Source of the DNA: Clostridia bacterium
Lineage (GTDB): Bacteria > UBA6262 > WVXT01
Assembly (NCBI GenBank): GCA_009619095.1
Contig: WJOT01000104.1
Location: forward strand, 1 to 45,372
DNA length: 45,372 bases
Direction: 5' to 3'
Part shown: piece after piece, positions 17,825-44,099 of the stretch
Layout of the letters: every line of letters begins with the position of its first letter
Numbering within the stretch: the stretch's first letter is position 1
Notes under the pieces: model-generated
Seen by the model: only the letters and a program-made list of their open reading frames with translations
Told to the model about the DNA's origin: nothing
Databases searched by the model: none
Position numbers and translations under genes: made by a program

Positions 17825-17847
17825 GCACAGATTGAATCTGTGCCTAC
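17825..17847 (-). repeat. GTAG-headed hairpin
   Basis: On the minus strand GTAG is followed by an 8-base perfect stem (GCACAGAT / ATCTGTGC) around a TCA loop. It lies 22 bases downstream of the MarR-like gene. Confidence 0.8.
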
Positions 17848-17868
17848 AAATTGATTTTAGTTTTGGTG

Positions 17869-18408
17869 TCAGACACCGATTTTTCCGGAAATGGCTTCTA
17901 AAATATTAAGGTAACGATTATTTCTCTTCTGGATATTTCTGTCAGCTAAAAGGATAATTGAACCTTTACTGTTAATTTCTTCTGGAGTTCTTGCTCTGGA
18001 ATATTGTAGGTCCTTTTTTTCCATATCCCGTAAGGATATTTCCACTATATCAGCAAGTTCCCCTTTACCAAGAATGGTAAAGTTTCTCTCCCCTTTCTCG
18101 TAGTATTCTAAAACAGTATCTTGAATTTTCTCTTTTACTTTTTTCAAAGTGTCTATACTTCTCAATAAGTAACGGTGGGTCTTTTTTACTTTCTCTGCAA
18201 ACCCCCGGGGTGTGAGAATATACTGGACTCTTCTTCGATCTAATCCTTTTACCTTCACATAACCTTTTGCAATAAGCCTTTTCATAATCAAGTTTGTCAT
18301 TCCCAGAGATAGTCCAATTTGGTGGGAGATTCTTCTCTGAGTGGTATTCAGGTCTTTGCCAATTTCATCTATAATTTTGAATTCGTAATCTTCTGTTCTC
18401 TCGGGCAT
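17869..18408 (-). CDS. MarR-like winged-helix regulator, EPS-associated type
   Basis: The N-terminal 75 residues form a winged helix-turn-helix: NTTQRRISHQIGLSLGMTNL (recognition helix in LGMTNLIMKRLI), KGYVKVKGLDRRRVQYILTP as the wing, then RGFAEKVKKT. This is the pattern of MarR-family regulators that sit in exopolysaccharide clusters. The C-terminal 80 residues (YYEKGERNFTILGKGELADI...) look like a small sensory or nucleotide-binding-like domain that I cannot name. The ATG at 18408 has GGAGG five bases upstream, so I prefer it to the GTG at 18420. It probably regulates the polysaccharide genes downstream. The 25-base gap to the small gene at 18433 suggests possible co-transcription with the toxin-antitoxin genes. 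Confidence 0.8.
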   Translation of the reverse strand: MPERTEDYEFKIIDEIGKDLNTTQRRISHQIGLSLGMTNLIMKRLIAKGYVKVKGLDRRRVQYILTPRGFAEKVKKTHRYLLRSIDTLKKVKEKIQDTVLEYYEKGERNFTILGKGELADIVEISLRDMEKKDLQYSRARTPEEINSKGSIILLADRNIQKRNNRYLNILEAISGKIGV

Positions 18409-18432
18409 CGGATCCTCCACCTATACTTTTCC

Positions 18433-18639
18433 CTATATCTCGCCTCGCCGGAATTGCTGCCAGATTCTGCGAGTCTTAGAGGTTAATGCTTTGCGGGTAA
18501 ATCGATTGGCTTCTTCTAACCATTTTAGTTTCATTGCTGCTGGCAAGGACATATATTTCCGTATAGTCTCCTCACTTAGGCAATAATAAAATCCTGTCTT
18601 GTTTTTCTTATCTACTTTTCTTCCGTAATCTCTTTTCAT
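18433..18639 (-). CDS. Small basic protein next to nucleotidyltransferase remnant
   Basis: The 68-residue protein reads FYYCLSEETIRKYMSLPA, MKLKWLEEANRFTRKAL and ends IWQQFRRGEI. I recall this as a small conserved type found beside nucleotidyltransferase genes in many uncultivated bacteria, but I cannot name a family or function. The ATG at 18639 overlaps the stop of the preceding 47-residue remnant, which continues the chain of overlapping genes from mntA. It may be an orphan partner of the lost nucleotidyltransferase. Confidence 0.6.
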   Translation of the reverse strand: MKRDYGRKVDKKNKTGFYYCLSEETIRKYMSLPAAMKLKWLEEANRFTRKALTSKTRRIWQQFRRGEI

Positions 18640-18779
18640 TTGCTTTTCTTTATTATCTTCTTTAATATCTTTAGAGCTTCGACATCAGCCAGATCCTGTT
18701 TCCTTTTAGATTTCCTTTTTAGCTGGATAAGATGGTCGATGGAAATAAGTGGAATCTTAAAATTTCTTTTACATCTCAT
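18636..18779 (-). pseudogene. C-terminal remnant of a nucleotidyltransferase
   Basis: The 47-codon frame reads FKIPLISIDHLIQLKRKSKR, then KQDLADVEALKILKK, the usual C-terminal end of larger nucleotidyltransferases (final phrase of the type I-ID-LI--K---GR-QD--DI--L). The N-terminal catalytic region is absent. Its ATG overlaps the hepT stop (ATGA) and its TGA overlaps the next ATG. The hepT gene thus occupies exactly the place where the rest of this gene should be, as if the MntA-HepT module had replaced it. Confidence 0.7.
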
Positions 18780-19198
18780 TTATTTGCTAAATATTTTTGA
18801 ATATGGTCAACAAATTTATGAAAATCATCAAGCCTTTGCAGCCACTGATAAATTTCACCCCAGTCAATTTCTAAATATCCATGGACAAGAATATTGCGAA
18901 GACCAGCGACTGAGGCAAAACTCTTGGCAAAGTCGAGTGGAATAATATTTGACTCTCCGAGTTTAATAATGGCACTATAATAGTCAGTCGGTTTCTCAAT
19001 ATCTTCAACAGAAATAATCCTGTTAGCAATATCTATGCAACATTGACAAGCAAGCTCTAAATTTCGCTCTACAATCGCCCGTAGATTAGAATCCTCAACA
19101 AGTTCTTTTTGTGTCTTTTCTTTAAGAGCTTCTAAGTCGCTTAAGCAACTTCTCAGTTTTTCTAAGCGCCTCTCTACTCCGCTGAACTCTGGTGGCAT
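18776..19198 (-). CDS. hepT: HepT-like HEPN ribonuclease toxin (DUF86)
   Basis: A 140-residue all-helical HEPN protein with the catalytic R-x4-H-x-Y motif in RNILVHGYLEID (about 106-117). In the MntA-HepT system HepT is an RNase, and the antitoxin MntA inactivates it by adding AMP to the tyrosine of this motif. The ATG at 19198 has AAGGAGGG five bases upstream. It overlaps the antitoxin gene by 77 bases, a longer overlap than usual but common in these pairs. All motif residues are present, so the toxin is probably functional. Confidence 0.88.
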   Translation of the reverse strand: MPPEFSGVERRLEKLRSCLSDLEALKEKTQKELVEDSNLRAIVERNLELACQCCIDIANRIISVEDIEKPTDYYSAIIKLGESNIIPLDFAKSFASVAGLRNILVHGYLEIDWGEIYQWLQRLDDFHKFVDHIQKYLANK

Positions 19199-19589
19199 AA
19201 TTCCCTCCTTTTATTATGTCTTCGCGTTGTTTTCTTAAAATCGGAAGATAATCGAAATATCGGCTTAAAGTATCGGCTTCAAATTCAACTTTTGTGTATT
19301 TGTCTTTGGCAAAAATTATCTTTCCTGAGCTAATAACATTGTATTGGAGCTCTACTGGTGCCTTATTTAAGATGACCAGATCAACTTGCGAAGTATTTAA
19401 TAACTCGCATATTTGGTGGGTCAGCTGATATTTGTATGCCAGAGGGGATTTTTGTGGAAGTAAAACGGCTATATCGTAATCGCTAATCGGTCCGGTGCGA
19501 CTACTGACCTGAGAGCCAAATAGATAGGCTAATAGTACCTTCTGTTTATTGAAAAACATTTCCAGTGCTTTTAATTTATCCTGTTCCAT
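19122..19589 (-). CDS. mntA: MntA-like minimal nucleotidyltransferase antitoxin
   Basis: A 155-residue protein with the minimal nucleotidyltransferase signature GS-x10-D-x-D in FGSQVSSRTGPISDYDIAVL (about 25-44), which coordinates the metals for AMP transfer to HepT. The C-terminal helices (YATRVQRSREALRKTEKLL) overlap the hepT start. It is first in the pair, and a near-consensus promoter with an overlapping palindrome lies upstream, consistent with autoregulation. There is no good Shine-Dalgarno at the ATG at 19589. Confidence 0.88.
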   Translation of the reverse strand: MEQDKLKALEMFFNKQKVLLAYLFGSQVSSRTGPISDYDIAVLLPQKSPLAYKYQLTHQICELLNTSQVDLVILNKAPVELQYNVISSGKIIFAKDKYTKVEFEADTLSRYFDYLPILRKQREDIIKGGNYATRVQRSREALRKTEKLLKRLRSS

Positions 19590-19606
19590 TTAATTGTGTG
19601 GCAATC

Positions 19607-19651
19607 GTTCATTTTTTGAACATTATACAGAATTGCTGGTATTTTTGTCAA
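19607..19651 (-). promoter_or_regulatory. Promoter and palindromic operator of mntA-hepT
   Basis: On the minus strand TTGACA (19646-19651) and TATAAT (19622-19627) are separated by 18 bases. A perfect inverted repeat GTTCA-N5-TGAAC (19607-19621) begins immediately after the -10 box and covers the expected transcription start, a good position for a repressor such as the antitoxin complex. Confidence 0.8.
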
Positions 19652-19684
19652 GTAAATTTTAGAGGTCGGTTTTATCCAACCCGA

Positions 19685-19708
19685 GGGCTCAATGAATTGA
19701 GCCCCTAC
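19685..19708 (-). repeat. GTAG-headed hairpin
   Basis: On the minus strand GTAG is followed by a 9-base perfect stem (GGGCTCAAT / ATTGAGCCC) around TC. It lies between the mannosyltransferase stop and the mntA promoter. Confidence 0.8.
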
Positions 19709-19716
19709 AGAAATAG

Positions 19717-20421
19717 TCAGTTGATTAAACTTAGGCGAAGTTTCCAGACTAAAAAGAAGGCTTGAAAAATGATTCTTTTTGAAATTTTAGATGTGCCGTG
19801 GGTGCGGTCAATAAAAGTGACAGGAACTTCTTTGAGGGAAAATCCCTTTTTCCACAATCTGTACTTCATTTCTATTTGAAATGCGTATCCATCAGAAATA
19901 ATTTTATCCAGGTCTATCTTTTCCAGAACTTTCCTCCGATAACAGTTAAATCCGCCTGTGGAATCGAAAATCGGAAGCCCAGTTACCATCCTTACATAAA
20001 TATTGGCTCCTTGACTGAGGATGAGCCTATGGAGAGGCCAATTTTGAATTCCACCATCCTTGATATATCGAGAGCCAATTACCAGACCATATTCTTTTGC
20101 TTCTTCCAGAAGGTCGATTAGATATTTCGGCTGATGGGAAAAGTCAGCATCCATCGTAAATACGAGGTCATAATTATTCTCCAGAGCGTACTTGAATCCG
20201 GTAATGTAAGCTGTTCCCAGACCAAGTTTGCCTGGGCGATGGATTACAGATACTTCTGGATACTTCTTTGCTAACCCATCAGCTATTCTACCTGTGTTAT
20301 CGGGGGAATTATCATCAATGATTAAGACATGGAAGTCCTTGTTTAATTTCCGTATTTCTTCTATTAGTCTTTCAATATTTTCCTTCTCGTTGTATGTGGG
20401 GATTATGATTATTGATTTCAT
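19717..20421 (-). CDS. Polyprenol-phosphate mannosyltransferase-like GT2
   Basis: A 234-residue soluble GT2 of the DPM1 type that transfers a hexose, usually mannose, from its nucleotide donor to polyprenyl phosphate. Motifs are SIIIIPTYNEKENIERLIEE (3-22), LIIDDNSPDNTG, the DAD metal-binding site in FTMDADFSHQPKYL (about 88-101), and GSRYIKDGGIQNWPLHR. KISKRIIFQAF near the end is typical. It lacks the C-terminal membrane domain of longer DPM/GtrB enzymes. A GTAG hairpin lies 8 bases upstream of the start and no Shine-Dalgarno is evident. It may supply lipid-linked sugars for periplasmic glycosylation. Confidence 0.9.
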   Translation of the reverse strand: MKSIIIIPTYNEKENIERLIEEIRKLNKDFHVLIIDDNSPDNTGRIADGLAKKYPEVSVIHRPGKLGLGTAYITGFKYALENNYDLVFTMDADFSHQPKYLIDLLEEAKEYGLVIGSRYIKDGGIQNWPLHRLILSQGANIYVRMVTGLPIFDSTGGFNCYRRKVLEKIDLDKIISDGYAFQIEMKYRLWKKGFSLKEVPVTFIDRTHGTSKISKRIIFQAFFLVWKLRLSLIN

Positions 20422-20428
20422 TTATAAC

Positions 20429-20602
20429 GCAGAGCTTCGCTCTGCAGCTACATTCTGCACAATTTGAAATTGTGCCTACAAAACCATTTCTGCACGGTTG
20501 AAACCGTGCCTACAAATACATTGTGCATCCCGATTTTCAATCGGGAAATTTGTGCCTACAAATCCTACATTTAATTACGGGTTCGATGAATCGAACCCCT
20601 AC
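20429..20602 (-). repeat. Cluster of five GTAG-headed hairpins
   Basis: Five elements at 20429-20451, 20457-20479, 20492-20513, 20523-20559 and 20578-20602, all with GTAG 5' of the stem on the minus strand. Stems differ (GCAGAGC, GCACAATTT, GCACGGTTT, a nested CCCGATT stem, GGGTTCGAT) but are internally complementary. The GTAG of the last element supplies the TAG stop of the decarboxylase gene (20599-20601). Nothing else is seen in the gap. Confidence 0.85.
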
Positions 20603-21528
20603 AGAGTTTTTTTGAAATATTCTATTGTTTTCTGGAGGCCTTCTTCCAGGGGAACTCTGGGAGACCAATTCAACAGTTTTTTTGCTTTGGTTATATCTGG
20701 TCGCCTAATTTTGGGGTCGTCTACAGGAAGGGGTTTATGAACTATTTTGCTTTTACTCTTTGTTAACTTTAGGATGAATTCTGCAAAATCATTAACGGTC
20801 ATTTCTTGAGGATTCCCTAAGTTAATGGGCTCATTGATATTGGAAAGGAGAAACTTATAGATGCCTTGAACCATATCTGAAACGTAACAGAAACTCCTGG
20901 TCTGTGCGCCATCACCGAATACGGTAAGAGGTTTCCCTTCTAAAGCCTGGTTAATAAACGTGGGAACGACACGACCGTCTTTTTTCCTCATTCTGGGACC
21001 ATAAGTGTTAAAGATTCTGGCAATCTTTGTGTCAATTTTGTGATAATAGTGGTAAGCCATAACCATCGCTTCAGCAAAACGTTTAGACTCATCGTACACG
21101 CCTCGAGGACCAACGGAATTAACATTGCCCCAGTAATCTTCCTTCTGGGGGCTAACCAGAGGGTCTCCATAGACTTCCGATGAAGAGGCTAACAAAAATT
21201 TTGCTTTCTTCTCCTTTGCCAGTCCAAGCGCTTTGTGTGTCCCTAAGGAACCTACCTTCAAGGTCTGGATGGGTAGTTCTTGATAGTCTATCGGGCTGGC
21301 AGGAGAGGCGAAATGTAGTATTGCATCAAGTTTGCCTTCAATGAAGATATACTCTGTCACATCATGGTGGATAAACTTAAACTTCTCATTTCCCATGAGA
21401 TGGGTGATGTTGTCAGTATTTCCGGTTATTAAGTTATCTATGCAAATTACGCTATGTCCTTCATTTATCAAGAAATCGCATAAGTGCGAGCCTAAAAATC
21501 CAGCGCCGCCTGTTACTACTATTCTCAT
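20599..21528 (-). CDS. uxs: UDP-glucuronate decarboxylase (UDP-xylose synthase)
   Basis: A 309-residue NAD-dependent extended [23 protein letters not shown] is the dinucleotide site, [20 protein letters not shown] and [18 protein letters not shown] are diagnostic for UXS-type enzymes, the active site is YDESKRFAE, and [20 protein letters not shown] closes the lobe. It decarboxylates UDP-glucuronate to UDP-xylose, using the product of the nearby ugd gene. I choose the ATG at 21528, which follows GGAGGGAAA and begins exactly at the Rossmann strand; the frame extends 10 residues further without support. The stop comes from a GTAG hairpin. Confidence 0.93.
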
Positions 21529-21571
21529 TTTCCCTCCTAACCACAGAATTGAAACCAAGCAAAGATGCTCT

Positions 21572-21606
21572 GCATCCCGATTTTCAATCGGGAAAATTGT
21601 GCCTAC
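21572..21606 (-). repeat. GTAG-headed hairpin, long nested type
   Basis: On the minus strand GTAGGCACAAT leads into a CCCGATT-GAAA-ATCGGG stem. It is nearly the same as the elements at 20523 and 23345, so this subtype is copied with sequence conservation. Confidence 0.8.
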
Positions 21607-21679
21607 AAAGAATTCCCTCTGCTATATTGCAGGAATATTTCTTGATGACCTTCTGTTTGGCATTAGCTGACTCCCCTCA

Positions 21680-22336
21680 TCAAAAAGTAGCCTGTCCCCT
21701 TTTTTGCAAAATTGTATCTAACCTTTTCTGAACACAAGAACTAATCTTAGAATTGGGTATTTTTCTTACCCATTCTTTTGCTTTCTTGAAACTAAACGAT
21801 TTAGGAAAATACAACTCAGGAAAGTAACTAAATTGTTTTTTCTTACGTGCGGAAAGGTATAAACTATCAACTAATGCTTTCTCTGGCTTCGCTATCAGGA
21901 AACTCCCCGTTTCCTTATACCAAATAAATCCATCAAAAAATGAGGGTGCTATACGGTGAACAGAAAAGGTTCCTATTTTCGTTTGAATTATCTTTGTATG
22001 AGCAGTTGAGGCAAGAGTAATTACCTGAGGAATCTGCTCAACTATGCCATACAAATGCAATGCACTTATAAAAGAAACATACGCTCGATGTCCGGGAAGT
22101 AGAAAAGGAATCACGCTATAAGCACTTAAGCGTTCTTTACTGACTTCAGCCCAAATGCCACGGTATACTTTAAAGACCACTCCTTCCCTTTGGAGAAAAT
22201 TGAGTGCCTGGGTTGTGGTGGATAAAGATTTCCCTGAGAGAGAAGACAATGCGCTTGTTGTAAACACAGGTTGATGCAATTGCTTAATAAATCGCAAAAT
22301 GGATAGTCTAGACATATGTTTTTCGGATTTCCTCAA
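21680..22336 (-). CDS. abiEi: AbiEi-like antitoxin (type IV toxin-antitoxin)
   Basis: A 218-residue protein with an N-terminal winged helix (FTTSALSSLSGKSLSTTTQAL, then LQREGVVFKVYRGIWA) and the AbiEi core: GHRAYVSFISALHLYGIVEQ, TIGTFSVHRI-like and AKPEKALVDSLYLSA. In AbiE systems this protein represses its operon and counteracts AbiEii. The gene order is reversed from the usual abiEi-abiEii order; here the toxin comes first and the genes overlap by 29 bases. The last six residues (RGQATF) and the stop are encoded by a 23-bp repeat, so the natural C-terminus may have been replaced. Confidence 0.85.
   Translation of the reverse strand: MRKSEKHMSRLSILRFIKQLHQPVFTTSALSSLSGKSLSTTTQALNFLQREGVVFKVYRGIWAEVSKERLSAYSVIPFLLPGHRAYVSFISALHLYGIVEQIPQVITLASTAHTKIIQTKIGTFSVHRIAPSFFDGFIWYKETGSFLIAKPEKALVDSLYLSARKKKQFSYFPELYFPKSFSFKKAKEWVRKIPNSKISSCVQKRLDTILQKRGQATF
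21682..21704. repeat. Left 23-bp inverted repeat of the AbiE module
   Basis: Reads aaaaagtagcctgtccccttt..., the exact reverse complement of 23235-23257 over 23 bases. It overlaps the 3' end of abiEi. Confidence 0.9.
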
Positions 22337-23084
22337 TAAAATTAGCTACTTTTAGTTTGACTTCATCCCATAAAGAGGATGAATTATACATAGCTTGATC
22401 TTCGGATGACAAATAAGAAATCACTGTATCCCGAAATTGCTCAAAACTCATCTCAAACACATTTTCATACGCTTTTGTCAATTTAGCACTATTTATTTTA
22501 ATTTCTTTTGTCTTGCGAGGAACATATTGAGAACTCAAAGTATACAAATCAAAAATGTCTCTTGCTTGGATTACAACTCTTGTAGAAAGAGCTTCTATCT
22601 TCTGAACTATTGTAGATAGAATATCATAATGGGAAACTATCAGAGGAGACAATTTGTATGAACGTAAAATGGAAACTGATACAGGCTCGGCAACACTATT
22701 TCCTTTGAATCCTCTGCGCGAAAATTCAACCTTAGTAAAAAGGTCTTCATTTGCAGAGGTAATTAAATGAATTTTAAATCTTTGTGTTGTCTGGGTTTGT
22801 TTTGCCTTCTTAATGTCAGGGGAAATAACTCTTTCAATTCCAAATGATTTAAGGCTATCTTGAAAAGATACAGATTGTAGTGTCTTCATAACCACATCGC
22901 GTAACTCCTCTACTTTTATGGTATGAATATCTAAATCCATATCTTCTGAGTAACGAAAATTATTAAAGAAAAAACGTAAATTTACCCCTCCTTTAAGGGC
23001 GTAATAATTTGTTCTAACCCTCTTGCCAAACCATCTTAAAAATTCCAGATGAAAGACTTCTCTTAATTGTAAAGAAGTATACAT
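22308..23084 (-). CDS. abiEii: AbiEii-like nucleotidyltransferase toxin
   Basis: A 258-residue DNA polymerase beta-like nucleotidyltransferase. Motif I and II are YALKGGVNLRFFF (about 28-40) and RYSEDMDLDIH (44-54, with the D-x-D pair), then VKFS/VEFSRRGF-type and ILRSYKLSPLIVSHYDILST, and ARDIFDLYTL (about 174-183). AbiEii toxins of this family modify RNA, including tRNA, and cause growth arrest or phage abortive infection. Motifs appear intact. It is the first gene after a strong promoter with a palindromic spacer. There is only a weak GAGA before the ATG and the 5' leader is very short. Confidence 0.88.
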   Translation of the reverse strand: MYTSLQLREVFHLEFLRWFGKRVRTNYYALKGGVNLRFFFNNFRYSEDMDLDIHTIKVEELRDVVMKTLQSVSFQDSLKSFGIERVISPDIKKAKQTQTTQRFKIHLITSANEDLFTKVEFSRRGFKGNSVAEPVSVSILRSYKLSPLIVSHYDILSTIVQKIEALSTRVVIQARDIFDLYTLSSQYVPRKTKEIKINSAKLTKAYENVFEMSFEQFRDTVISYLSSEDQAMYNSSSLWDEVKLKVANFIEEIRKTYV

Positions 23085-23103
23085 TTTTTTCTCAGTATTA
23101 TGT

Positions 23104-23132
23104 ATTATACTTTAGTTATAACTAAATTGCAA
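23104..23132 (-). promoter_or_regulatory. Promoter with palindromic spacer for the AbiE operon
   Basis: On the minus strand TTGCAA (23127-23132) and TATAAT (23104-23109) are 17 bases apart. The spacer contains a perfect 16-base palindrome, TTTAGTTA/TAACTAAA (23111-23126). A repressor bound there would block the promoter directly, which fits AbiEi-type autoregulation. The leader is about 12 bases. Confidence 0.82.
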
Positions 23133-23257: not shown

Positions 23258-23270
23258 CGGACAATGGAGC

Positions 23271-23379
23271 GGGTTCAATGAATTGAACCCCTACAATTTT
23301 TAGATTAGATGCACAGATTGAATTTGTGCCTACAAATACATTTTGCATCCCGATTTTCAATCGGGAAATTTGTGCCTAC
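23271..23379 (-). repeat. Three GTAG-headed hairpins
   Basis: Elements at 23271-23294 (stem GGGTTCAAT), 23311-23333 (GCACA-AT, with one mismatch) and 23345-23379 (nested CCCGATT stem). The triplet matches part of the cluster at 20457-20602 in order and type, so the block may have been copied as a unit. Confidence 0.82.
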
Positions 23380-24822: not shown

Positions 24823-24955
24823 GGGCGACCACAAGGGTCGCCCCTACGCGATTCGCAAGGACTCCAGAATCTTTTGGAGTAGCGAAACTTGTTTCGCGTT
24901 AATAACGCAGAGCAAGTTCTGCTACTCCTAAGACGCTCCGATGAATCGGAGCTAC
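24823..24955. repeat. Cluster of four GTAG-headed hairpins, both orientations
   Basis: Elements at 24823-24847 (minus, stem GGGCGACC), 24879-24897 (plus, GCGAAAC/GTTTCGC), 24906-24925 (minus, imperfect GCAGA stem) and 24935-24955 (minus, GCTCCGAT). They fill the 220-base gap between rfbD and ugd. Confidence 0.82.
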
Positions 24956-24967
24956 TCCTTATAATCG

Positions 24968-27383: not shown

Positions 27384-27427
27384 GTAGCACCGCTTGCGGT
27401 GCGTTAACGCGAAACAAGTTTCTCTAC
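27384..27427. repeat. Pair of GTAG-headed hairpins in opposite orientation
   Basis: 27384-27402 is a plus-oriented element (GTAG, GCACCGC/GCGGTGC) and 27409-27427 a minus-oriented one (GCGAAAC-like stem with one mismatch). Convergent pairs like this resemble bacterial interspersed mosaic arrangements of REP elements. The rest of the gap to rfbA holds short cccga/tcggg palindromes. Confidence 0.78.
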
Positions 27428-27505
27428 TCCAAAAACTCTGGAGTCCCCCGATGAAATCGGGGGTCTTCCCCTCCCTTTCGGGAGGACTCCAAAAAAACCT
27501 AGTCC

Positions 27506-28567: not shown

Positions 28568-28589
28568 TTGATTTCCTTAGTAAAGATGA

Positions 28590-28712
28590 ATAACCCCCTC
28601 ACCCTAACTCTCTCTCCGTAGGAGTGTCCCGACTTGTCGGGACAAGGGTAAAGCTCTCGCTTTACACTCCATTATATACCCTTCACACTAACCCTTAGAG
28701 GAGAGGGAAGTC
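28590..28712 (+). repeat. Long interspersed repeat, copy A
   Basis: A 62-base core (28620-28681) contains two hairpins, GTCCCGACTTGTCGGGAC and GTAAAGCTCTCGCTTTAC. It is 59/62 identical to the reverse complement of 31295-31356. Flanking arms (ccccctcaccctaac at the left, gaggagagggaag at the right) are also shared. The strand shown is arbitrary; copy B lies inverted. Confidence 0.88.
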
Positions 28713-28720
28713 GATAATAA

Positions 28721-29533
28721 TTAAGAAATTGTCGGGGATTTCTCAAAATATTCAACTATAGCTGCACAGACAAATCCAATAAACAGGCTCAAAATTCCAG
28801 CAATCAGGATATTCTGCTTCTTTTTAGGTCCGATTGGCTTTTCAGGAGTTCTAGGAGGAATTACCAACTCTGTGCTAACGGTCCCATAGGACTCCTCCAT
28901 CTTTTTCTCTCTGAGTTCTACCTGAACTTGTTCATACCTGACACGGCTTTTCTCCAAGGCATCCATATATCCTCGAGCGAGCATGGCTTTTGCATCCGAA
29001 TCGGTAGCTCCAAGTTGGTCTATTTTCCTCTGGAACATTTCAATTTCTTTCTCCATCTCCACCAGACGCTCTTTACCGGAAGCGAGATATTCCTCCAGAA
29101 TCATTTTTGCCCGTTCAAAAATCTGCTCGTGCCTATTCAGAAGAACTGTAATCACTCCATTCGCCAATTTCAGAGCTTCCTCTGGAGTTTCTCCCTTTAC
29201 TTTTATCTCCAAAAGCTCAGCCTTTTCCTTTATCTTTATCTTTGAAGCCAGTTCCTGCAATTTCTCTTGTATAGGAGGAATATTAAGTTCTTCTGCTACT
29301 TTTTCCAACATCGGTCTTGTGTTAAAAATCTCTATAACTGTGGAAGGTTCTTCCAACAGTTTGTTTCTCATTCTCCCAATTCTGATTAATGCTGAAACTT
29401 CATAAGTCTTGGGCAAAAGGAAGCTCACCACTCCGCTGGTTATTGTAGAAACTAAGAAAATAATTAAAATAATTTTCCACCTTTTCTTTGCCATATTGAT
29501 GTAATCCCTCAAATCCACTTCTTTCTCTTCCAT
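28721..29533 (-). CDS. wzz: Wzz-type polysaccharide chain-length determinant
   Basis: A 270-residue polysaccharide co-polymerase. A first membrane helix (IILIIFLVSTITSGVVSFLL, about 19-38) is followed by a periplasmic domain starting TYEVSALIRIG and rich in coiled-coil heptads (EEYLASGKERLVEMEKEIEM), then the proline-rich PPRTPEKPIGPKKK and a second helix (LIAGILSLFIGFVCAAIVEY). There is no C-terminal tyrosine-kinase domain. It controls the length of chains made by a Wzy polymerase. I choose the ATG at 29533, preceded by AAGGAGGAG; the frame upstream has no support. Confidence 0.9.
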   Translation of the reverse strand: MEEKEVDLRDYINMAKKRWKIILIIFLVSTITSGVVSFLLPKTYEVSALIRIGRMRNKLLEEPSTVIEIFNTRPMLEKVAEELNIPPIQEKLQELASKIKIKEKAELLEIKVKGETPEEALKLANGVITVLLNRHEQIFERAKMILEEYLASGKERLVEMEKEIEMFQRKIDQLGATDSDAKAMLARGYMDALEKSRVRYEQVQVELREKKMEESYGTVSTELVIPPRTPEKPIGPKKKQNILIAGILSLFIGFVCAAIVEYFEKSPTIS

Positions 29534-30834: not shown

Positions 30835-30859
30835 CGCTCCGATTCATCGGAGCGACTAC
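30835..30859 (-). repeat. GTAG-headed hairpin
   Basis: On the minus strand GTAGT then a 9-base perfect stem CGCTCCGAT/ATCGGAGCG around GA. Its GTAG supplies the TAG stop (30856-30858) of the prenyltransferase remnant. It lies 10 bases upstream of tRNA-Glu. Confidence 0.8.
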
Positions 30860-31259: not shown

Positions 31260-31391
31260 CCTTTTCTTCCTCTCCCCAAAGGAGAGAGAGTAAGGGGTAT
31301 ATAATGGAGTGTAAAGCGAGAGCTTTACTCTTGTCCCGACTTGTCGGGACACTCCTATGGCGGAAAGGGTTAGAGTAAGGGGGTTGTCTCT
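31260..31391 (-). repeat. Long interspersed repeat, copy B (inverted)
   Basis: Core 31295-31356 is 59/62 identical to the reverse complement of 28620-28681. The outer arms also match copy A in degenerate form. The pair encloses wzz, the second MntA-HepT-like module and four tRNA genes. Confidence 0.88.
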
Positions 31392-33010: not shown

Positions 33011-33082
33011 GCAGAGCTTCGTCCCGATTCATCGAGACAGACAGCTACATCCAATCACGGATTCGATAAATCGAACCCCTAC
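33011..33082 (-). repeat. Two GTAG-headed hairpins
   Basis: 33011-33048 is a compound element (GTAGCTGTCTGTCTCGATGA..., outer GCAGAGC-like arm plus an inner GTCTCGAT/ATCGGGAC arm); 33058-33082 has a GGGTTCGAT stem with one mismatch. They separate serA from the aminotransferase. Confidence 0.75.
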
Positions 33083-38123: not shown

Positions 38124-38275
38124 GGGCGACCATCCCGATACATCGGGATCGCCCCTACACTACCAAAACCATTATGGGTAGTGTAGCCCTTTATGGGTGC
38201 CCCGATTTATCGGGGCGGGGACAAGCCTTTGGGCGACCATCCCGATGTATCGGGATAAATTGCGGTCGCCCCTAC
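38124..38275. repeat. GTAG-headed hairpins between clpP and clpX
   Basis: Elements at 38124-38158 (minus, GGGCGAtCCCGAT...), 38183-38217 (plus, GTAG with a GCCCCGAT/ATCGGGGC stem) and 38231-38275 (minus). Two carry a second CCCGAT-GTAT-ATCGGG hairpin nested in a GGGCGACC stem. An ACTACC/GGTAGT motif borders the block and recurs at 44038-44099. These and short palindromes fill the 235-base gap. Confidence 0.8.
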
Positions 38276-38343: not shown

Positions 38344-38946
38344 TTATTTTCTCTGCTCAATTACTTCATCAACCAGGCTATAGGCTTTTGCCTCTTCGGC
38401 TGTCATAAAGAAATCGCGGTCTGTGTCTTTCTCTATTTTCGCCAGAGGTTGACCCGTATGTTTTGCCATAAGCTCATTCATCTTGGCTTTCATACGCATA
38501 ATTTCCTTAGCTTGAATGCCGATATCAGTTGCTTGACCCTGCACTCCTCCCAGAGGTTGATGTATCATTATGCGGGAATTGGGCAGGGCAAATCGCTTCT
38601 TCTTTGCCCCGGCTGCGAGAAGAAGTGCTCCCATACTGGCTGCCTGACCCATACATATCGAAGAGATACTTGGTTTAACATATTGCATCGTATCATAAAC
38701 CGCAAGACCGGCAGTTACTATTCCTCCTGGACAGTTAATGTATAAGGAAATGTCTTTATCAGGATCTTCTGCCTCCAAAAACAGCAATTCAGCGATAATC
38801 ACATTAGCGACTTCATCTGTTAAAGGTGTACCCAAAAATACAATCCTATCCCTCAAAAGACGGGAATAAATATCAAAGGCTCTCTCTCCTCTCGGTGACT
38901 GCTCAACCACCATGGGAATCAACTGCCCAAAAGTTTTTAACTTCAT
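38344..38946 (-). CDS. clpP: ATP-dependent Clp protease proteolytic subunit ClpP
   Basis: A 200-residue serine peptidase that forms the 14-mer chamber. The catalytic triad is Ser104 in MGQAASMGA, His129 in MIHQPLGG and Asp178 in [28 protein letters not shown] is the classical N-terminus near the processing site. All active-site residues and the length are typical. The ATG at 38946 follows GAGGGGG. It precedes clpX in the operon with a repeat-filled gap. Confidence 0.98.
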
Positions 38947-39002
38947 ACATTACCCCCTCATCTTAACCCTCTCCCCCAAGGGGAGAGGAAACTTTTTTGT
39001 AT

Positions 39003-40304
39003 CTATTTCCTCTTCTCTTTTATAATTTTAGCATTTTCTATTAAAAAGTCAAATACTTTATTCTCTCTCATTTTGCTTGTGATTTGGTCTATGTTTTCAT
39101 AAAAGTATCTTTTTATTTCTTCTTCTTTTTCTTTAGTTGATTTTATTGTCTCCTCTATTTCTTTCTCTATTTCCTTAGAATCAACCTGGATATTCTCTTT
39201 CTCAGCTATCCTGGCAAAAATTAAAGTGCTGCGGACTTGTTTTTCTGCAAGGTTACGATATTTCTTCCGCAGGACTTCCTCATCCGCCCCGATATCTTTC
39301 GAAGCAAGCCCGCGACTCTGAAGGTAAGTCTTCATCTTTAAGATTAGATAATCGAGCTGTTTTTCGATTAGAGAATTAGGAACCACCACAGGGTTATTCT
39401 CAATTAGCCTGTCAATAATCTGTTCTCTCATTGCCTCTGTTGTTTTATGCTCCTCCAGCTTAATCAAATTTTCCCTCAATTTCTCTTTCAATTCTCTCAA
39501 AGATTTAGCTCCTAATCCCTGAGCAAAAGCATCGTCAATTTCTGGTAATTGCATTTTTTTAATCTCTTTAACCTTTACTTTAAAGAGAACTTTATGCCCC
39601 GCCAACTTCTTATTAAAATAATTATCCGGAAAATTCACCTCAACATTTTTCTCTCCGCCTCTTTCCATGCCAATCAATCCTTCAGAAAACTCCCGGAGAA
39701 AAATAGGGCTTTCAATGCTTATCAACTGATTTTCTCCTCGAAGCCCATTCAAGGGTTTACCGTTACCGAATCCTTGATAATCGATTACTACATAACTTTT
39801 TCTATCTACCACGTTATCCCCGGAGACCACAAGCTGGGCATTCCTTTTCTGCAGTTCTTTCAGACTTTCCCCTATTTCATAATCACCCGTGACTTTTATC
39901 TCTTTTTTTATCTTAAGTTTCTTATAATTCCGTGGCTCAAAACGAGGTATCACTTCAACCGTTGCCTGAAAAGATATTGGTTCTCGCTTAGCAAAATCGA
40001 ATTTAAGGTCAGAAATCTCTGCCGGAGCAATAGGGTCAATTCCTTTCTCTTTTACCACCTGAGATAATGCGTCTGGGACGAGCGATTCTAAAACAGTTTC
40101 CTGACAACGAGACTTAAATTTCTCCCTCAAAAAAGCAGGCGGCGCCTTTCCTCTACGGAAACCGGGTATAACAGCTTCCTTTTGAATCTCGTTGTATGTC
40201 AATTCTATTTCCTTTTCTATTTCTACTTGAGGAATCTCGATTTTGAAAACAAGCTCACATTCGCTTTTCTTGGATATTTCTACCTTTAAATTTTCTATAG
40301 CCAT
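39003..40304 (-). CDS. tig: Trigger factor (ribosome-associated chaperone)
   Basis: A 433-residue trigger factor. The ribosome-binding signature is in PGFRRGKAP (about 49-57); the FKBP-like PPIase region follows DRKSYVVIDYQGFGNGKPL; and a long helical C-terminal chaperone domain ends FDFLIENAKII. It binds nascent chains at the ribosome exit tunnel. It begins 10-13 bases after the encoded CCA of tRNA-Leu, so it is probably co-transcribed with three tRNAs. AGGAAAGAG precedes the ATG at 40304. It is the first protein gene of the quality-control cluster. Confidence 0.95.
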   Translation of the reverse strand: MAIENLKVEISKKSECELVFKIEIPQVEIEKEIELTYNEIQKEAVIPGFRRGKAPPAFLREKFKSRCQETVLESLVPDALSQVVKEKGIDPIAPAEISDLKFDFAKREPISFQATVEVIPRFEPRNYKKLKIKKEIKVTGDYEIGESLKELQKRNAQLVVSGDNVVDRKSYVVIDYQGFGNGKPLNGLRGENQLISIESPIFLREFSEGLIGMERGGEKNVEVNFPDNYFNKKLAGHKVLFKVKVKEIKKMQLPEIDDAFAQGLGAKSLRELKEKLRENLIKLEEHKTTEAMREQIIDRLIENNPVVVPNSLIEKQLDYLILKMKTYLQSRGLASKDIGADEEVLRKKYRNLAEKQVRSTLIFARIAEKENIQVDSKEIEKEIEETIKSTKEKEEEIKRYFYENIDQITSKMRENKVFDFLIENAKIIKEKRK

Positions 40305-40320
40305 TTTAACTCTTTCCTGG

Positions 40321-40408
40321 TGCCGCGGGAGAGATTCGAACTCTCAACTCCATATAATTGGAGACTAGGTCCTAAGCCTAGCGTGTTTGCCAATTTCACC
40401 ACCGCGGC
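40321..40408 (-). tRNA. tRNA-Leu (anticodon UAG)
   Basis: Class II tRNA of 88 bases with a long variable arm (TCTCCAATTATATGGAG region). Acceptor GCCGCGG/CCGCGGC, anticodon loop CTTAGGA, T-loop TTCGAAT, discriminator A; the CCA is encoded (40318-40320). It lies directly before tig. Confidence 0.96.
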
Positions 40409-40411
40409 AAG

Positions 40412-40484
40412 TGGGCCATGGAGGAATCGAACCTCCAACCTCCTGCTTAAGAGGCAGTTGCTCTACCTGTTGAGCTAATGGCCC
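40412..40484 (-). tRNA. tRNA-Lys (anticodon CUU)
   Basis: Acceptor GGGCCAT/ATGGCCC, T8-A9, anticodon loop CTCTTAA, T-loop TTCGATT, discriminator A. The CCA is not encoded. The base pair 27-43 is an A-G mismatch. It lies 3 bases from tRNA-Leu, so the precursor must be processed. Confidence 0.93.
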
Positions 40485-40522
40485 AAAAAAAGATATATTC
40501 AAAATTGCCTTGGCTTATCTGG

Positions 40523-40596
<74 letters not shown>

Positions 40597-41077
40597 ATCG
40601 TCCCGATTTCCAATCGGGACTCTCAAGTGGGAGAACGTAGTTCTCCCCCCTTGCGTCCCCGATTAAAATCGGGTCCTGTTATCCCCCTCTCCCTAGAGGC
40701 TCTCCCTTTACCCTCCCCTAATTAATTTATCATGTATCGTCCTGGTTGGAAATCGGGACTGTCGACCCCCTCCTCTTGAGAGGTTTCTCCCTTAATCCAC
40801 CCTTAATTATTTATCAGCATCATCCCGATTGAGCTCGGGACTGTCGACCCCCTCATCTTGAGAGGTTTTTCCCTTAATCCACCCTTAATTATTTATGCCG
40901 CATCGTCCCGATTTCCAATCGGGCCTCTCAAGTGGCCCCGATGTTAATCGGGACCCCCTTGCGTCCCTCGACAAGCTCGGGACTGTTATCCCCCTCTCCT
41001 TAGAGGTTCTCCCATGAATCCACCCTTAATTATTTATGCCGCATCGTCCCGATTAACATCGGGGACTGTTATCTGTC
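40597..41077 (-). repeat. Tandem repeat array between promoter and tRNA-Arg
   Basis: About four and a half units, roughly 40597-40737 (long), 40738-40818 (short), 40819-40898 (short), 40899-41039 (long) and a partial copy to 41077. Each has a cgtcccgat-N-atcgggact hairpin, a ccccctct-cttgagagg segment and a ccacccttaattatttat tail; long units (about 141 bases) contain an additional hairpin. Unit length varies between about 81 and 141 bases and hairpin stems vary. No gene is seen in the 585 bases from 40597 to 41181 besides the promoter and terminator listed below. Confidence 0.85.
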
Positions 41078-41083
41078 GTCTTA

Positions 41084-41112
41084 TTTATATCACATTTAAA
41101 TTTCTTTGTCAA
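41084..41112 (-). promoter_or_regulatory. Sigma70-like promoter for tRNA-Arg-Lys-Leu-tig
   Basis: On the minus strand TTGACA (41107-41112) and TATAAA (41084-41089) are separated by 17 bases. It lies just after the terminator of the transporter operon. The first gene downstream is tRNA-Arg, some 480 bases away across the repeat array. Confidence 0.8.
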
Positions 41113-41118
41113 CCCAGA

Positions 41119-41151
41119 TAAAAAACCGCCACATTTATAAGATGGGCGGTT
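41119..41151 (-). terminator. Rho-independent terminator of the CDF-NSS operon
   Basis: On the minus strand the stem AACCGCC/GGCGGTT (7 base pairs, 14-base loop) is followed by TTTTTT. It comes 30 bases after the stop of the 31-residue transporter partner. Confidence 0.82.
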
Positions 41152-41181
41152 AATTACTTTTTTTGAATTATCTTTAAGAAC

Positions 41182-41277
41182 CTATTTCTTTCTTAAAATA
41201 CGATAGAAACAGAATATCAAAAGAAGAATTATGACTGACCAAGAAAAAATCAGAAAAAACCAACCCAAACCTGTCAT
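41182..41277 (-). CDS. 31-residue membrane peptide, likely NSS transporter small partner (MetS-like)
   Basis: A 31-residue frame reads TGLGWFFLIFSWSVIILLLI, then FCFYRILRKK and a TAG at 41182-41184: one membrane helix with a basic end. Its ATG overlaps the stop of the NSS transporter (ATGA), so it is translated with it. MetPS-type methionine/alanine transporters have such a small subunit, and similar single-helix peptides follow NSS genes in many bacteria. The terminator just downstream supports it as the last gene of the operon. Function is by analogy. Confidence 0.72.
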   Translation of the reverse strand: MTGLGWFFLIFSWSVIILLLIFCFYRILRKK

Positions 41278-42845
41278 TTTTCTTTCCTAATTAATATTTT
41301 TCTTTTCTTCCATGCATATGCTACAGACATTGCTAATACTATAAATATTATTAGCATCAAACCTCTTATGAACAAAACGTATGGATACTGCTCTGAAGTA
41401 ACATTCTTCATTGCTATCATGGGCAATCCTTCCTTAACTATCCAGAATCCGAGGATAAAAAGCAAAAATAGGGGAGTAATATACTTAATGATAAACTTAT
41501 AAAATTTGGGAATCACAATATCTGCTCCGTGATGAATCTCTTTCCAGGCGCGGTCGATACCAAAAATCCAGGCAAACACTATCGTCTCAACAGTAGCAAA
41601 TAGCACCAGGCAAAATGTCCCTCCCCAAAAATCGAGTTCGTTCAACACTCCTTTTCCCAGGAAAAAAATAGCTGGCTGGCAGAGAATAAATGTAACTACT
41701 CCAAATATAGTTGCTGATTTCTTCCTGGTTATATCGAACTCGTCTTCCAAAAAGCTTATCACCGGCTGGGCTAAAGAAACGCTGGAGGTGACACCGGCCA
41801 AAAAGAGAAGTGTAAACCACAGAAAAGCAAAGATTGCACCCAGGGGAATCCTCTGAAAAATCAGGGGCATAGTAACGAAGCCTAAATTGAAGGCTCCACT
41901 CTGAGCAATATTTACAATTTCCCGAGGACCAAAAAATACAAAGGCTGCCGGAATAACGATACTTGCGCCCAAAATGACTTCAGCAAATTCATTTGTTGCC
42001 GCTGCGGTTAATCCAGAAAGAGCAACATCATCCTTTTTAGTTAAATAACTCGCATAAGTAAGAATTACGCCGATTCCCACACTGAGAGTGAAAAATATCT
42101 GACCAGCAGCAGCAAGCCAGACCTTGGCGCTTTTTAAAGCGGCAAAATTTGGATTCCACAGAAATCCCAGTCCATTAACTAAGTTCCAATCAGGTCTTAA
42201 TAAATTAGGTATTCCTAAGCTTAATACACGAACAGCGAGGATAATTCCACAAATTAGGAGTATGGGCATTGCCCAGTTACATAATTTTTCTATCCCTCTA
42301 CGAATGCCATAGTAAATTACAAACACATTTAATGAAAATGTGATTATGAAAAATAGGTATGCCCAGCCAATACCATGGAAATACTCATTCGTCTGCAACC
42401 CCTGGTAACCTTGTAGAAACGATTGCATTGCTGGCTGTGTGGTTGCCTGCGCGTATCGCCCGGTGATAGAAAAAAACGCATAGCCCAATAACCACGACTC
42501 AACATAGGTATAATACATGAAAATGAGAACAGGACCAAAAATGCCAATTACACCAAAATATTTAATGAAACGGTTCTTCTGCCACATCGATTGGAAAATA
42601 CCCGGGGCTGTGCCATGGCCGAATCCTCCACCGAATCTGCCAGCAGTCCACTCTATCCACATTAAAGGAATCCCCAGGAGGAGAAAAGAGATAAAGTATG
42701 GTATCATAAATGCGCCACCGCCGTTCTGTGCTGCCTGGACGGGAAAACGTAAAAAATTTCCTAGCCCGACTGCTGACCCGGCAACTGCAAGAATAATCCC
42801 CGTTCTGGTTTTCCAGGTTTCGCGTAATTTATTAATCTTTGCCAT
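41274..42845 (-). CDS. Sodium-dependent NSS-family transporter
   Basis: A 523-residue inner-membrane symporter with about 12 helices in the LeuT fold. The first helix holds GIILAVAGSAVGLGNFLRFP followed by VQAAQNGGGAFMIPYF, with the unwound NSS signature (A-x-G-x-A-V-G-L-G-N) that binds substrate and Na+. The class usually imports amino acids, and tyrosine/tryptophan/methionine/alanine types exist; the substrate is not readable. The ATG at 42845 lies 12 bases downstream of the CDF stop with AAGGAAAAGG before it. It overlaps the MetS-like peptide. Confidence 0.93.
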   Translation of the reverse strand: MAKINKLRETWKTRTGIILAVAGSAVGLGNFLRFPVQAAQNGGGAFMIPYFISFLLLGIPLMWIEWTAGRFGGGFGHGTAPGIFQSMWQKNRFIKYFGVIGIFGPVLIFMYYTYVESWLLGYAFFSITGRYAQATTQPAMQSFLQGYQGLQTNEYFHGIGWAYLFFIITFSLNVFVIYYGIRRGIEKLCNWAMPILLICGIILAVRVLSLGIPNLLRPDWNLVNGLGFLWNPNFAALKSAKVWLAAAGQIFFTLSVGIGVILTYASYLTKKDDVALSGLTAAATNEFAEVILGASIVIPAAFVFFGPREIVNIAQSGAFNLGFVTMPLIFQRIPLGAIFAFLWFTLLFLAGVTSSVSLAQPVISFLEDEFDITRKKSATIFGVVTFILCQPAIFFLGKGVLNELDFWGGTFCLVLFATVETIVFAWIFGIDRAWKEIHHGADIVIPKFYKFIIKYITPLFLLFILGFWIVKEGLPMIAMKNVTSEQYPYVLFIRGLMLIIFIVLAMSVAYAWKKRKILIRKEK

Positions 42846-42857
42846 TTTACCTTTTCC

Positions 42858-43985
42858 TTATGCGGGCTCTACGTGAATCAGCACTTTAAAATTAGGGAGT
42901 TCTCTTTTTATATCTCTTTCCAGGTGGTCGCATACCCGATGAGCCTGCTCAACGCTAATTTTCCTCGCCAGGACAAGATGGAGATAAACCTGTTCTTCGC
43001 TTCCTTTTCTTACTATAAATAAATCATGAAAATTTACAAATTTCTGGTAATGCTCTTGTAAAATCCTGGTGATAATTTCTAACTTTCTATTCCTTTCTTC
43101 TCTATCTCCAGTTCCTGGATTTATATGAATCATTATGTTACCAATATTTTTCAACTTCTGAAGTAGCAGTTTCTCAATTTGATTGGAAATCCCATGTCCT
43201 TCTTCTATAGATAGGTCGGCGTCGATTTGAACACTCAGATCGATTGAATTTCTCCAACCCAGGCGACGTGTTTTGACATCATCAATTCTTTTTACTTCCC
43301 CTATACTCAGTGTGAGTTTTTTAATTTCATCAATAAAATCTTCGGGAAGGGAAGTGTCCATTAGTTCTCTCAAAGAGGGACGAAGAATGTCTATTCCTAT
43401 CTTAAAAATGAACAGGGCAACAACGAAGCCAGCCAGAGGATCGAGGAAAGTGTAACCAAGTCTGGCGCCTGCTATTCCTATTAGAGCTGCCACGGAAGTA
43501 AGCGCATCAGCACGGTGATCAGAGGCACTAGCCAAAATGGCTAAATTGTCGAATTTTTTGCCTATATAATAAGTATACCTGAATAATAATTCTTTGACCA
43601 GAATGGAAATTAAAGCAGCCCATAGAGGCAAAAGCCCCGGTACAATCCTAATCTTTAAAAAAATAGCATTTAGTGCACGATAAGAGAGCACTATGGACAT
43701 TCCCAACAATATAAAACTGATGCAAAGTGCTGCTATTGATTCGGCTTTCCCGTGTCCATAGGGGTGGTCTTGATCAACAGGCTTTTGAGAAATTTTTACA
43801 CTGGTTAAAGTTAATATGCCAGCAAAGATATCGGAAAGAGAATGGAAACCATCGGAAAGCATCGCCTGGCTTCTTCCCCAAATTCCGGCAAATATCTTAA
43901 ATATAGCTAAGAAGAAATTTATCCAAATTCCTGTCCAGCTTACTATTTTACTTTTTCTGAATCTTTCTTCTAATGAATACATCAT
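42858..43985 (-). CDS. Cation diffusion facilitator metal exporter
   Basis: A 375-residue CDF protein with six membrane helices and a cytoplasmic domain. The metal-binding motifs are in AMLSDGFHSLSDIFAGI (H-x3-D, about 41-57), DQDHPYGHGKAESIAAL (about 73-89) and DHRADALTS (about 156-164). The C-terminal domain (VKRIDDVKTRRLGWRNSIDL, then VQIDADLSIEEGH and VLIHVEP) is the ferredoxin-like dimer domain, here longer than in FieF with an added 80-residue repeat of the same type. It exports Zn, Fe, Mn or similar by proton exchange. First gene of the operon with the NSS transporter. Confidence 0.92.
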   Translation of the reverse strand: MMYSLEERFRKSKIVSWTGIWINFFLAIFKIFAGIWGRSQAMLSDGFHSLSDIFAGILTLTSVKISQKPVDQDHPYGHGKAESIAALCISFILLGMSIVLSYRALNAIFLKIRIVPGLLPLWAALISILVKELLFRYTYYIGKKFDNLAILASASDHRADALTSVAALIGIAGARLGYTFLDPLAGFVVALFIFKIGIDILRPSLRELMDTSLPEDFIDEIKKLTLSIGEVKRIDDVKTRRLGWRNSIDLSVQIDADLSIEEGHGISNQIEKLLLQKLKNIGNIMIHINPGTGDREERNRKLEIITRILQEHYQKFVNFHDLFIVRKGSEEQVYLHLVLARKISVEQAHRVCDHLERDIKRELPNFKVLIHVEPA

Positions 43986-44009
43986 TATGGCTCTTCTCTA
44001 AAAAGTTGT

Positions 44010-44099
44010 GAGTAGTGTAGCCCTTTATAGACGTAAGGTAGTGTAGCTCTTTATGGGCGCCCCGATTTATCGGGGCGGGGATAAACCCCTACACTACCA
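44010..44099. repeat. GTAG/GTAGTGTAG repeat between RND and CDF genes
   Basis: Two gtagtgtagc(c/t)cttta heads (44012 and 44037) lead into a GCCCCGATTTATCGGGGC stem and end in cctacactacc (44088-44098), giving inverted GTAGTGTAG/CTACACTAC ends. A close relative lies at 38153-38217. Nothing else is seen in the 124-base gap. Confidence 0.75.

What the first reader, a model, noticed from the sequence alone, without database searches (positions are those of the whole stretch)
17825..44099. REP-like hairpin family with an invariant GTAG head and freely varying stems
At least 20 short intergenic elements in 17.8-44.1 kb share only GTAG(G/C) at the 5' side of a perfect or near-perfect stem of 7-10 base pairs. 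The stems are unrelated in sequence between many copies (GCACAGAT, GGGTTCGAT, GGGCGACC, GCACCGC, GCGAAAC, CGCTCCGAT) yet complementary within each copy. REP elements mobilised by RAYT/TnpA-REP Y1 transposases are known for a 5' GTAG tetranucleotide before a hairpin. Here the stem diversity is much greater than in a normal REP family, which suggests either many RAYT lineages or a process that rewrites stems while keeping pairing. No RAYT gene is in the window.
Basis: partly seen in the sequence, partly recalled or inferred. Interest (0 to 1): 0.78.

Follow-up and report, generated by a model that had tools for sequence, protein, structure and literature searches.

The report
Tagged hairpins whose cores get overwritten
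The window carries many short DNA hairpins of a known mobile kind (REP elements, spread by several RAYT enzymes found elsewhere in the same genome); unexpectedly, in this lineage about a third of comparable hairpins have had their whole core swapped in place for one favoured sequence while the surrounding DNA stayed the same.

Summary
The hairpins are real. GTAG sits at the stem base in 30 of 308 hairpin sides; no other tetramer exceeds 8. They are REP elements. The window has no RAYT gene, but the genome has about seven, several flanked by hairpins of matching type. Stems do not vary freely. They form discrete families, each with its own tag, outer stem or loop and a few inner stems shared between species, for example 60 of 61 fully paired copies but only four inner stems in one family.

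The second option, stem rewriting, also has direct support. Of 28 tagged hairpins with alignable flanks in a sister species, 16 are identical, 3 carry one-sided point changes and 9 are replaced wholesale. All 9 replacements hold a CCGA(T/C):(A/G)TCGG core in this genome. A third species places the change in this lineage at all three sites that could be polarised. The incoming core can be flipped relative to the tag, which argues against simple strand-specific RAYT transposition. The mechanism is inferred, not shown; ectopic template switching at single-stranded hairpins is my favoured explanation.

The parts
17825..17847 (-). REP family F1: GTAG-GCACAGAT-tca-ATCTGTGC
19685..19708 (-). REP family F2: GTAG-GGGCTCAA-ttca-TTGAGCCC
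20429..20451 (-). GTAG-ct-GCAGAGC-gaa-GCTCTGC hairpin
20457..20479 (-). REP F1: GTAG-GCACAATT-tca-AATTGTGC
20492..20513 (-). REP F1: GTAG-GCACGGT-ttca-ACCGTGC
20526..20559 (-). compound element: GTAGGCACAAAT followed by TCCCGATT/AATCGGGA hairpin; three similar copies (also 21572-21606 and 23345-23379)
   Evidence: family D6
20579..20602 (-). REP F2: GTAG-GGGTTCGA-ttca-TCGAACCC
23271..23294 (-). REP F2: GTAG-GGGTTCAA-ttca-TTGAACCC
23311..23333 (-). REP F1 with one unpaired position (AAA/TCT), the only unpaired one of 61 F1 matches
24823..24847 (-). REP F4: GTAG-GGGCGACC-cttgt-GGTCGCCC
24879..24925 (.). F6 head-to-head dimer: GGAGTAGC-GAAAC (+) and GGAGTAGC-AGAAC/GCTCT (-)
24935..24958 (-). GGAGTAGC-TCCGAT-tc-ATCGGA-GC (F6 with CCGAT core)
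27384..27402 (+). F6 hairpin GTAGC-ACCGC-TT-GCGGT-GC; its head-to-head partner (GAAAC, tag mutated) follows; conserved in sister species
27445..27463 (+). GGAGT-CCCCCGAT-gaa-ATCGGGGG; sister species has a degenerate CCTTGC/GCAGG hairpin at this place
28588..28721 (.). insertion with GGAGTGTCCCGA and GTAAAGC hairpins; absent (empty site) in sister species G002; inverted 74-nt copy at 31287-31360
30835..30859 (-). REP F3 GTAGT-CGCTCCGA-tgaa-TCGGAGCG; orthologous site in G002 has GTAGT-CGCAGAC-ttca-GTCTGCG with near-identical flanks: in-place core replacement
33059..33082 (-). degenerate REP F2 copy (88% to 20565-20605)
   Evidence: D12
38124..38158 (-). REP F4 whose loop holds ATCCCGAT-ATCGGGAT; G002 has plain loop CACTGAGT
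38199..38216 (.). GCCCCGA-ttta-TCGGGGC hairpin; G002 has CGTAA-cct-TTACG at this place
38231..38275 (-). REP F4 with loop GCAATTTATCCCGATACATCGGGAT; G002 has loop TTTAT; the same change seen at two other orthologous sites
44058..44077 (.). CGCCCCGA-ttta-TCGGGGCG hairpin of the same non-GTAG class as 38199

Best explanation
The elements are REP-type miniature palindromes of several families that coexist in one small genome of an uncultured lineage. Each family is tied to one of several RAYT (Y1 HUH nuclease) lineages that recognise the 5' tag (GTAG, or GGAGT/GGAGTA in one group), the outer stem and the loop, while the inner stem need only pair. The anatomy and the flanking of RAYT genes are shown; the recognition itself is inferred from characterised RAYTs. 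On top of ordinary REP spread, stems change by wholesale in-place replacement: in the lineage of this genome a self-complementary core CCGA(T/C)..(A/G)TCGG has overwritten the inside of hairpins of different families while tag, outermost pairs and flanks stay. This replacement is shown by orthologous sites. How it happens is inferred: most likely the core is copied from other genomic copies by ectopic template switching or short-homology conversion when the hairpin is single-stranded at the replication fork. A fold-back second arm, or copying of the whole hairpin, would keep pairing and allow either orientation.
For: GTAG excess. Whole-genome counts of stem-free patterns against reversed controls: F1 38/14/9 in G000/G001/G002 against 0; F6 61/25/172 against 5-6. 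60 of 61 F1 copies fully paired. RAYTs identified (PDB 4er8 E 3.5e-15 for P0001). RAYT flanks: C107 with F1 on both sides; C42 with F6 on both sides; C112 with F4; C116 with F5; G002 C69, C35 and C43 with their own types (random both-side rate 0.5%). RAYT homologues in WOR-3 (69%) and Elusimicrobia (56%) MAGs are flanked by GTAGGCAC..GTGC hairpins with other inner stems. Replacement: 28 tagged sites gave 16 identical, 9 replaced, 3 one-sided point changes, 0 compensated point changes. Three polarised sites have G001=G002 and G000 derived, and 61 kb of G001-G002 alignment has no replacement. Core count CCCGATN2-5ATCGGG is 210 in G000 against 59-77 in congeners and 0 in two same-order genomes. 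Loop orientation: 43:9 for the CCGA core against 234:0 for other stems, Fisher 1.2e-7. Nearest possible templates in G002 mostly more than 1 kb away.
Against: No experiment; all genomes are metagenome bins and G000 is 86% complete. Only three replacements are polarised by a third species, and the tree is nearly a star (104/67/57 informative sites). Some incoming elements have exact same-family copies elsewhere in the sample (S5 2, S6 4, S7 3, S12 7 copies including the site itself), so RAYT-mediated REP-for-REP replacement within a family is not excluded. Microhomology at the junctions is only 0-3 paired bases plus the shared tag, short for conversion. One untagged site has the core in G002 and not in G000 (L144/L022), so the process is not strictly one-way.
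Confidence: 0.68

Rival explanations
1. RAYT-catalysed REP-for-REP exchange: a RAYT cleaves a resident hairpin at both sides on single-stranded DNA and joins a different hairpin of the same family between the same flanks.
For: TnpAREP cleaves and transfers strands between REP substrates in vitro (PMC8266576). Several replacements are within one tag family and exact copies of the incoming element exist. RAYTs are present in G000.
Against: Inverted REPs are not processed (PMC8266576), yet 9 of 52 tagged CCGA cores have a flipped loop against 0 of 234 others. The same core enters GTAG, GGAGT and untagged hairpins.
Confidence: 0.27
2. Independent loss of the old REP and insertion of a new one at the same place (ordinary turnover), with no replacement event.
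For: Several orthologous intergenic sites carry quite different element sets in G000 and G002; an empty site exists (window 28588-28721).
Against: At the strict sites flanks match up to the outer stem, which needs exact excision and exact re-insertion each time; no empty intermediate was seen at these sites.
Confidence: 0.2
3. Stepwise point mutation with compensatory change, or fold-back template switching that repairs one arm from the other, explains all stem diversity.
For: F1 inner stems AGA, AAA, AAT, GAT form a chain of single-pair steps and one intermediate exists. Template switching is known to create and maintain hairpins (PMC8794818).
Against: At tagged orthologous sites no compensated point change was found, against 9 whole-core replacements that all involve the same core. 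It cannot by itself supply the same new core at many sites.
Confidence: 0.12
4. Assembly artefact: repeated hairpins were mis-joined in the G000 bin.
For: Metagenome bin of 132 contigs with some duplicated contigs (C14/C49) and 3% contamination.
Against: Hairpins of 20-40 nt are normally spanned by single reads. A mis-join would mix flanks rather than change the core between matching flanks. The same change recurs at many sites and is nested inside F4 loops.
Confidence: 0.05

Closest known systems
GTAG-tagged REP families of Di Nocera et al. 2013 (PMC3733652)
   Same: Unpaired GTAG at one end, mostly 6-9 bp stems, short loops often TY or CMA, subfamilies with alternative complementary stem residues, head-to-head dimers, RAYT genes flanked by the repeats.
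   Different: Many families in one 2-Mb genome of an unnamed lineage; one group is tagged GGAGT/GGAGTA; stems are seen being replaced at orthologous sites.
Group 2/3 RAYT/TnpAREP REPtrons (E. coli, S. maltophilia, Marinomonas; PMC8266576)
   Same: RAYT family proteins; REPs with perfect stems; GTAG and loop bases matter while the stem sequence is partly tolerant.
   Different: No biochemistry here; about seven RAYTs with different cognate hairpins; conserved outer stem (GCAC/GTGC) in F1, whereas base-of-stem changes were tolerated in S. maltophilia.
REP 'orthoswitch' (Nunvar et al. 2013, PMC3686654)
   Same: REP sequence changes while the RAYT association stays; its mechanism was called open.
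   Different: In that model old copies stay in place and decay; here old copies are overwritten where they stand.
BIMEs of E. coli (Y/Z motifs, own knowledge) and REPINs (PMC3116915)
   Same: Inverted pairs of REPs spread as units.
   Different: All F6 head-to-head dimers listed pair a GAAAC/GAGAC-type hairpin with an AGAGC/ACCGC-type hairpin; none is homotypic.
Template-switch mutations that create hairpins (PMC8794818)
   Same: A single event can create or change both arms of a stem.
   Different: There the template is local; here the same core appears at many sites with the nearest template mostly more than 1 kb away.

Membership tests
GTAG REP elements | 5' GTAG (or close variant) at the base of a palindrome | tested here: met
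   30 of 308 hairpin sides, next tetramer 8; not met for the GGAGT-tagged and untagged hairpins
GTAG REP elements | Short palindrome repeated in high copy, mostly between genes | tested here: met
   F1 38 copies, F6 61 matches, CCCGAT core 210 in G000; window copies lie mostly between ORFs, with a few elsewhere inside RAYT genes
GTAG REP elements | Association with a RAYT gene flanked by cognate repeats | tested here: met
   C107/F1, C42/F6, C112/F4, C116/F5, G002 C69, C35 and C43; cross-phylum for F1
RAYT (REP-associated tyrosine transposase) | Y1 HUH domain and family profile score | tested here: met
   PF01797 over cut-off; NF047646 143.6 to 85 bits for six proteins, cut-off 80; 76.7 and 66.2 for two just below
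RAYT (REP-associated tyrosine transposase) | Cleaves cognate REP, strand-specifically | not testable with these tools
   needs purified protein
BIME/REPIN | Inverted REP pairs at defined spacing that spread as a unit | tested here: met
   63 head-to-head F6 dimers counted in three genomes (8, 3, 52), control 0
REP mobility | Empty sites in relatives | tested here: met
   window 28588-28721 absent in G002, although that unit is GGAGT-tagged; most other sites differ in content rather than being empty

The most novel reading that the evidence does not exclude
A 12-17-nt self-complementary core (CCCGAT..ATCGGG) behaves as a minimal selfish or favoured sequence that spreads by overwriting the interior of pre-existing, unrelated hairpins, in either orientation and independently of their tags. 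Hairpins in this lineage would then be modular: a base that belongs to one mobile family and a core that moves between families.
Probability: 0.33. Interest if true: 0.85.

Novelty: new variant of a known kind. Interest (0 to 1): 0.63.

Why it matters
How REP stems change sequence while staying perfectly paired and matched to a RAYT is an open question (the orthoswitch, PMC3686654). Here closely related genomes catch the change at defined orthologous sites, with direction, and show that it is a whole-core replacement rather than base-by-base compensation. That makes the mechanism directly testable and warns against reading paired changes in such hairpins as evidence for stepwise selection on structure.

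Tried and rejected
A covariance model was not built: with free stems it would hold mainly GTAG plus pairing, too little information for a 2-Mb genome, so degenerate patterns with reversed controls were used. 'Stems vary freely' was rejected. GTAG as the tag of every hairpin was rejected: GGAGT/GGAGTA and untagged classes exist. Local template switching as the whole answer was rejected because nearest templates are mostly more than 1 kb away. Automatic RAYT-flank counting missed hairpins with long loops, so some flanks rest on reading the sequence. Literature searches for in-place REP replacement found nothing direct in the open-access library.
Full report
1. What is there. The window is contig C45 of a 1.99-Mb, 86% complete genome bin (G000) that has three congeners (G001-G003) in the search set and otherwise only two genomes of the same order. 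Hairpins with GTAG at the stem base are far above chance. In the window GTAG gives 11 hits against a median of 2 over all 256 tetramers. In a 331-kb sample GTAG is immediately next to 30 of 308 hairpin sides and no other tetramer exceeds 8.

2. The stems are not free. Searching whole genomes with the stem left open (GTAGGCACNNNTTYAANNNGTGC) gives 38, 14 and 9 matches in G000, G001 and G002 and none with the reversed control. All but one of the 61 are fully paired, but only four inner stems occur (AGA, AAT, GAT, AAA), shared by the three species. The pattern GTAGCNNNNNTTNNNNNGC gives 61, 25 and 172 matches (control 5, 6 and 5), and the G000 and G001 lists together with the part of the G002 list that was printed show a handful of stems (GAAAC, GAGAC, AGAGC, ACCGC, AGACT, AGACC, AGGTT). 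Other families have their own outer stem and loop. All head-to-head dimers of the second family that were listed join one stem of a GAAAC/GAGAC group to one of an AGAGC/ACCGC-type group; none is homotypic (63 counted). Two identical hairpins facing each other would make a long perfect palindrome, which may explain this; that is inference.

3. RAYT genes. PF01797 finds about nine Y1 genes in G000, none on C45; two of them look like IS200-type TnpA. NCBIfam names those tested REP-associated tyrosine transposases or scores them just below the cut-off, and the C107 protein's best PDB match is TnpArep 4er8. C107 has six F1 hairpins of two inner stems around it; C42 has second-family hairpins on both sides; C112 and C116 have different RAYTs with different hairpin types between the same two genes (leuC and leuD by my reading of the sequence); G002 C69, C35 and C43 have their own types. 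Homologues of the C107 RAYT in a WOR-3 bin (69% identical) and an Elusimicrobia bin (56%) are also flanked by GTAGGCAC..GTGC hairpins with different inner stems and, in the second, another loop. Tag, outer stem and loop thus go with the RAYT lineage, while the inner stem varies inside each genome. This fits what is known for group 3 RAYTs, which need pairing and a loop base but tolerate stem changes.

4. In-place replacement. Aligning sampled stretches of G000 and G002 (about 300 kb of alignment, partly redundant, 85-98% identity) shows sites where the flanks match and only the hairpin core differs. Examples: GTAGTCGC[AGAC ttca GTCT]GCG against GTAGTCGC[TCCGA tgaa TCGGA]GCG at window 30835; GTAGC[AGACTtcAGTCT]GC against GTAGC[TCCGATttATCGGA]GC at L078:5551; GTAG[TCGGGCTCG tccc CGAGCCCGA]C against GTAG[TCCCGACtcGTCGGGA]C at L009:12278; GTAGC[AGGTTttAACCT]GC against GTAGC[CCCGATttATCGGG]GC at L009:5334. 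At three F4 sites the short loop is replaced by one and the same 25-nt loop that contains the same core. Among the 28 tagged G002 hairpins with alignable flanks, 16 are identical, 9 are replaced, 3 carry a one-sided point change and none a compensated point change. In all nine the G000 hairpin has a CCGA(T/C) core. One untagged site shows the reverse, with the core in G002.

5. Direction. G001 and G003 orthologues were found for four regions. At the three replacement sites where G001 is alignable, G001 equals G002 and G000 differs. G001-G002 alignments of 61 kb contain no replacement. Substitutions group G000 with G001 (104 sites against 67 and 57), so the change is most simply placed on the G000 branch. 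The CCCGATN2-5ATCGGG core is about three times more frequent in G000 (210) than in its congeners (59-77) and absent from the two same-order genomes.

6. Mechanism. Shown: whole-core change with flanks kept; the same core at many sites; several tags and outer stems involved; the core sometimes flipped relative to the tag (2-nt loops 43 pyrimidine: 9 purine for CCGA cores, 234:0 for other tagged stems, Fisher 1.2e-7). Inferred: copying from other genomic copies during replication of single-stranded hairpins. Local template switching is known to make and repair hairpins, but the nearest template here is mostly more than 1 kb away, so the copying would have to be ectopic. A RAYT-driven exchange is the main rival; its known strand specificity fits the flipped cores poorly. 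Exact excision followed by re-insertion is the third. A second route to new stems is visible in one place: G002:C51:6296 (GTAGCACCGCTTGCTCTGC) is what a deletion between the two GCTTGC repeats of the compound ACCGC-AGAGC element would give.

7. Comparison and verdict. These are REP/BIME elements with RAYTs, a known kind, in an unnamed lineage. What is new is the evidence that stems are replaced where they stand, by one dominant core and across families, which differs from the published model in which old copies decay in place after an orthoswitch. The organism's name is not known, all genomes are bins, and the mechanism is not proved.

Noticed in passing
L015:8516-9450 (G000:C116), L016:1-700 (G000:C112), L066:2613-3293 (G002:C14): The same intergenic place (leuC-leuD by my reading) carries one RAYT in C116 and G002 and a quite different RAYT in C112. 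Each RAYT gene contains a hairpin of its own flanking type inside its reading frame (in C116 it encodes VGTDRRVCP, conserved in G002).
   Followed up: partly
G002:C51:6296-6342; G002:C35:14012-14075 and 14688-14751; G001:C106:63-126: Compound ACCGC-AGAGC elements and a chimeric hairpin (5' arm ACCGC, 3' arm AGAGC) that a deletion between GCTTGC repeats would produce.
   Followed up: partly
L013:11754-14687 (G000:C46): A RAYT flanked by GTACTCGGGGTC-agagac-GACCCCGAG hairpins without GTAG; five copies of such a unit at 92-nt spacing at L013:11754-12145.
   Followed up: no
L068 (G002:C43) and many G000/G002 sites: A RAYT surrounded by GGAGTCCTCCCGAAAGGGAGG hairpins: a GGAGT tag instead of GTAG.
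   Followed up: partly
L014:9562-10230 (G000:C18) and L067 (G002:C10): Longer RAYT-like Y1 gene (222 aa frame) flanked by inverted GGGGACACAATACTTA rather than by REP hairpins.
   Followed up: no
window 1929-1966, 2327-2438, 3735-3864: Clustered 9-nt tandem repeats (AACTAATnn / AACCAATnn) at three places.
   Followed up: no
window 15981-16009: Isolated long hairpin AGGGACAGTCCCC-tgc-GGGGACAGTCCCT without tag.
   Followed up: no
L014:15978-15996 against L138:14451: A TCCCGATTTTCAATCGGGA hairpin sits in G000 where G002 has only CAATG, inside a GATTGCTTCACTTCGTTCGCAATGAC-type repeat.
   Followed up: partly
G000:C14:55000-72051 and G000:C49 (L010, L011): Two contigs share identical stretches including a frameshifted IS200-type TnpA; likely a duplicated or strain-variant assembly.
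   Followed up: no
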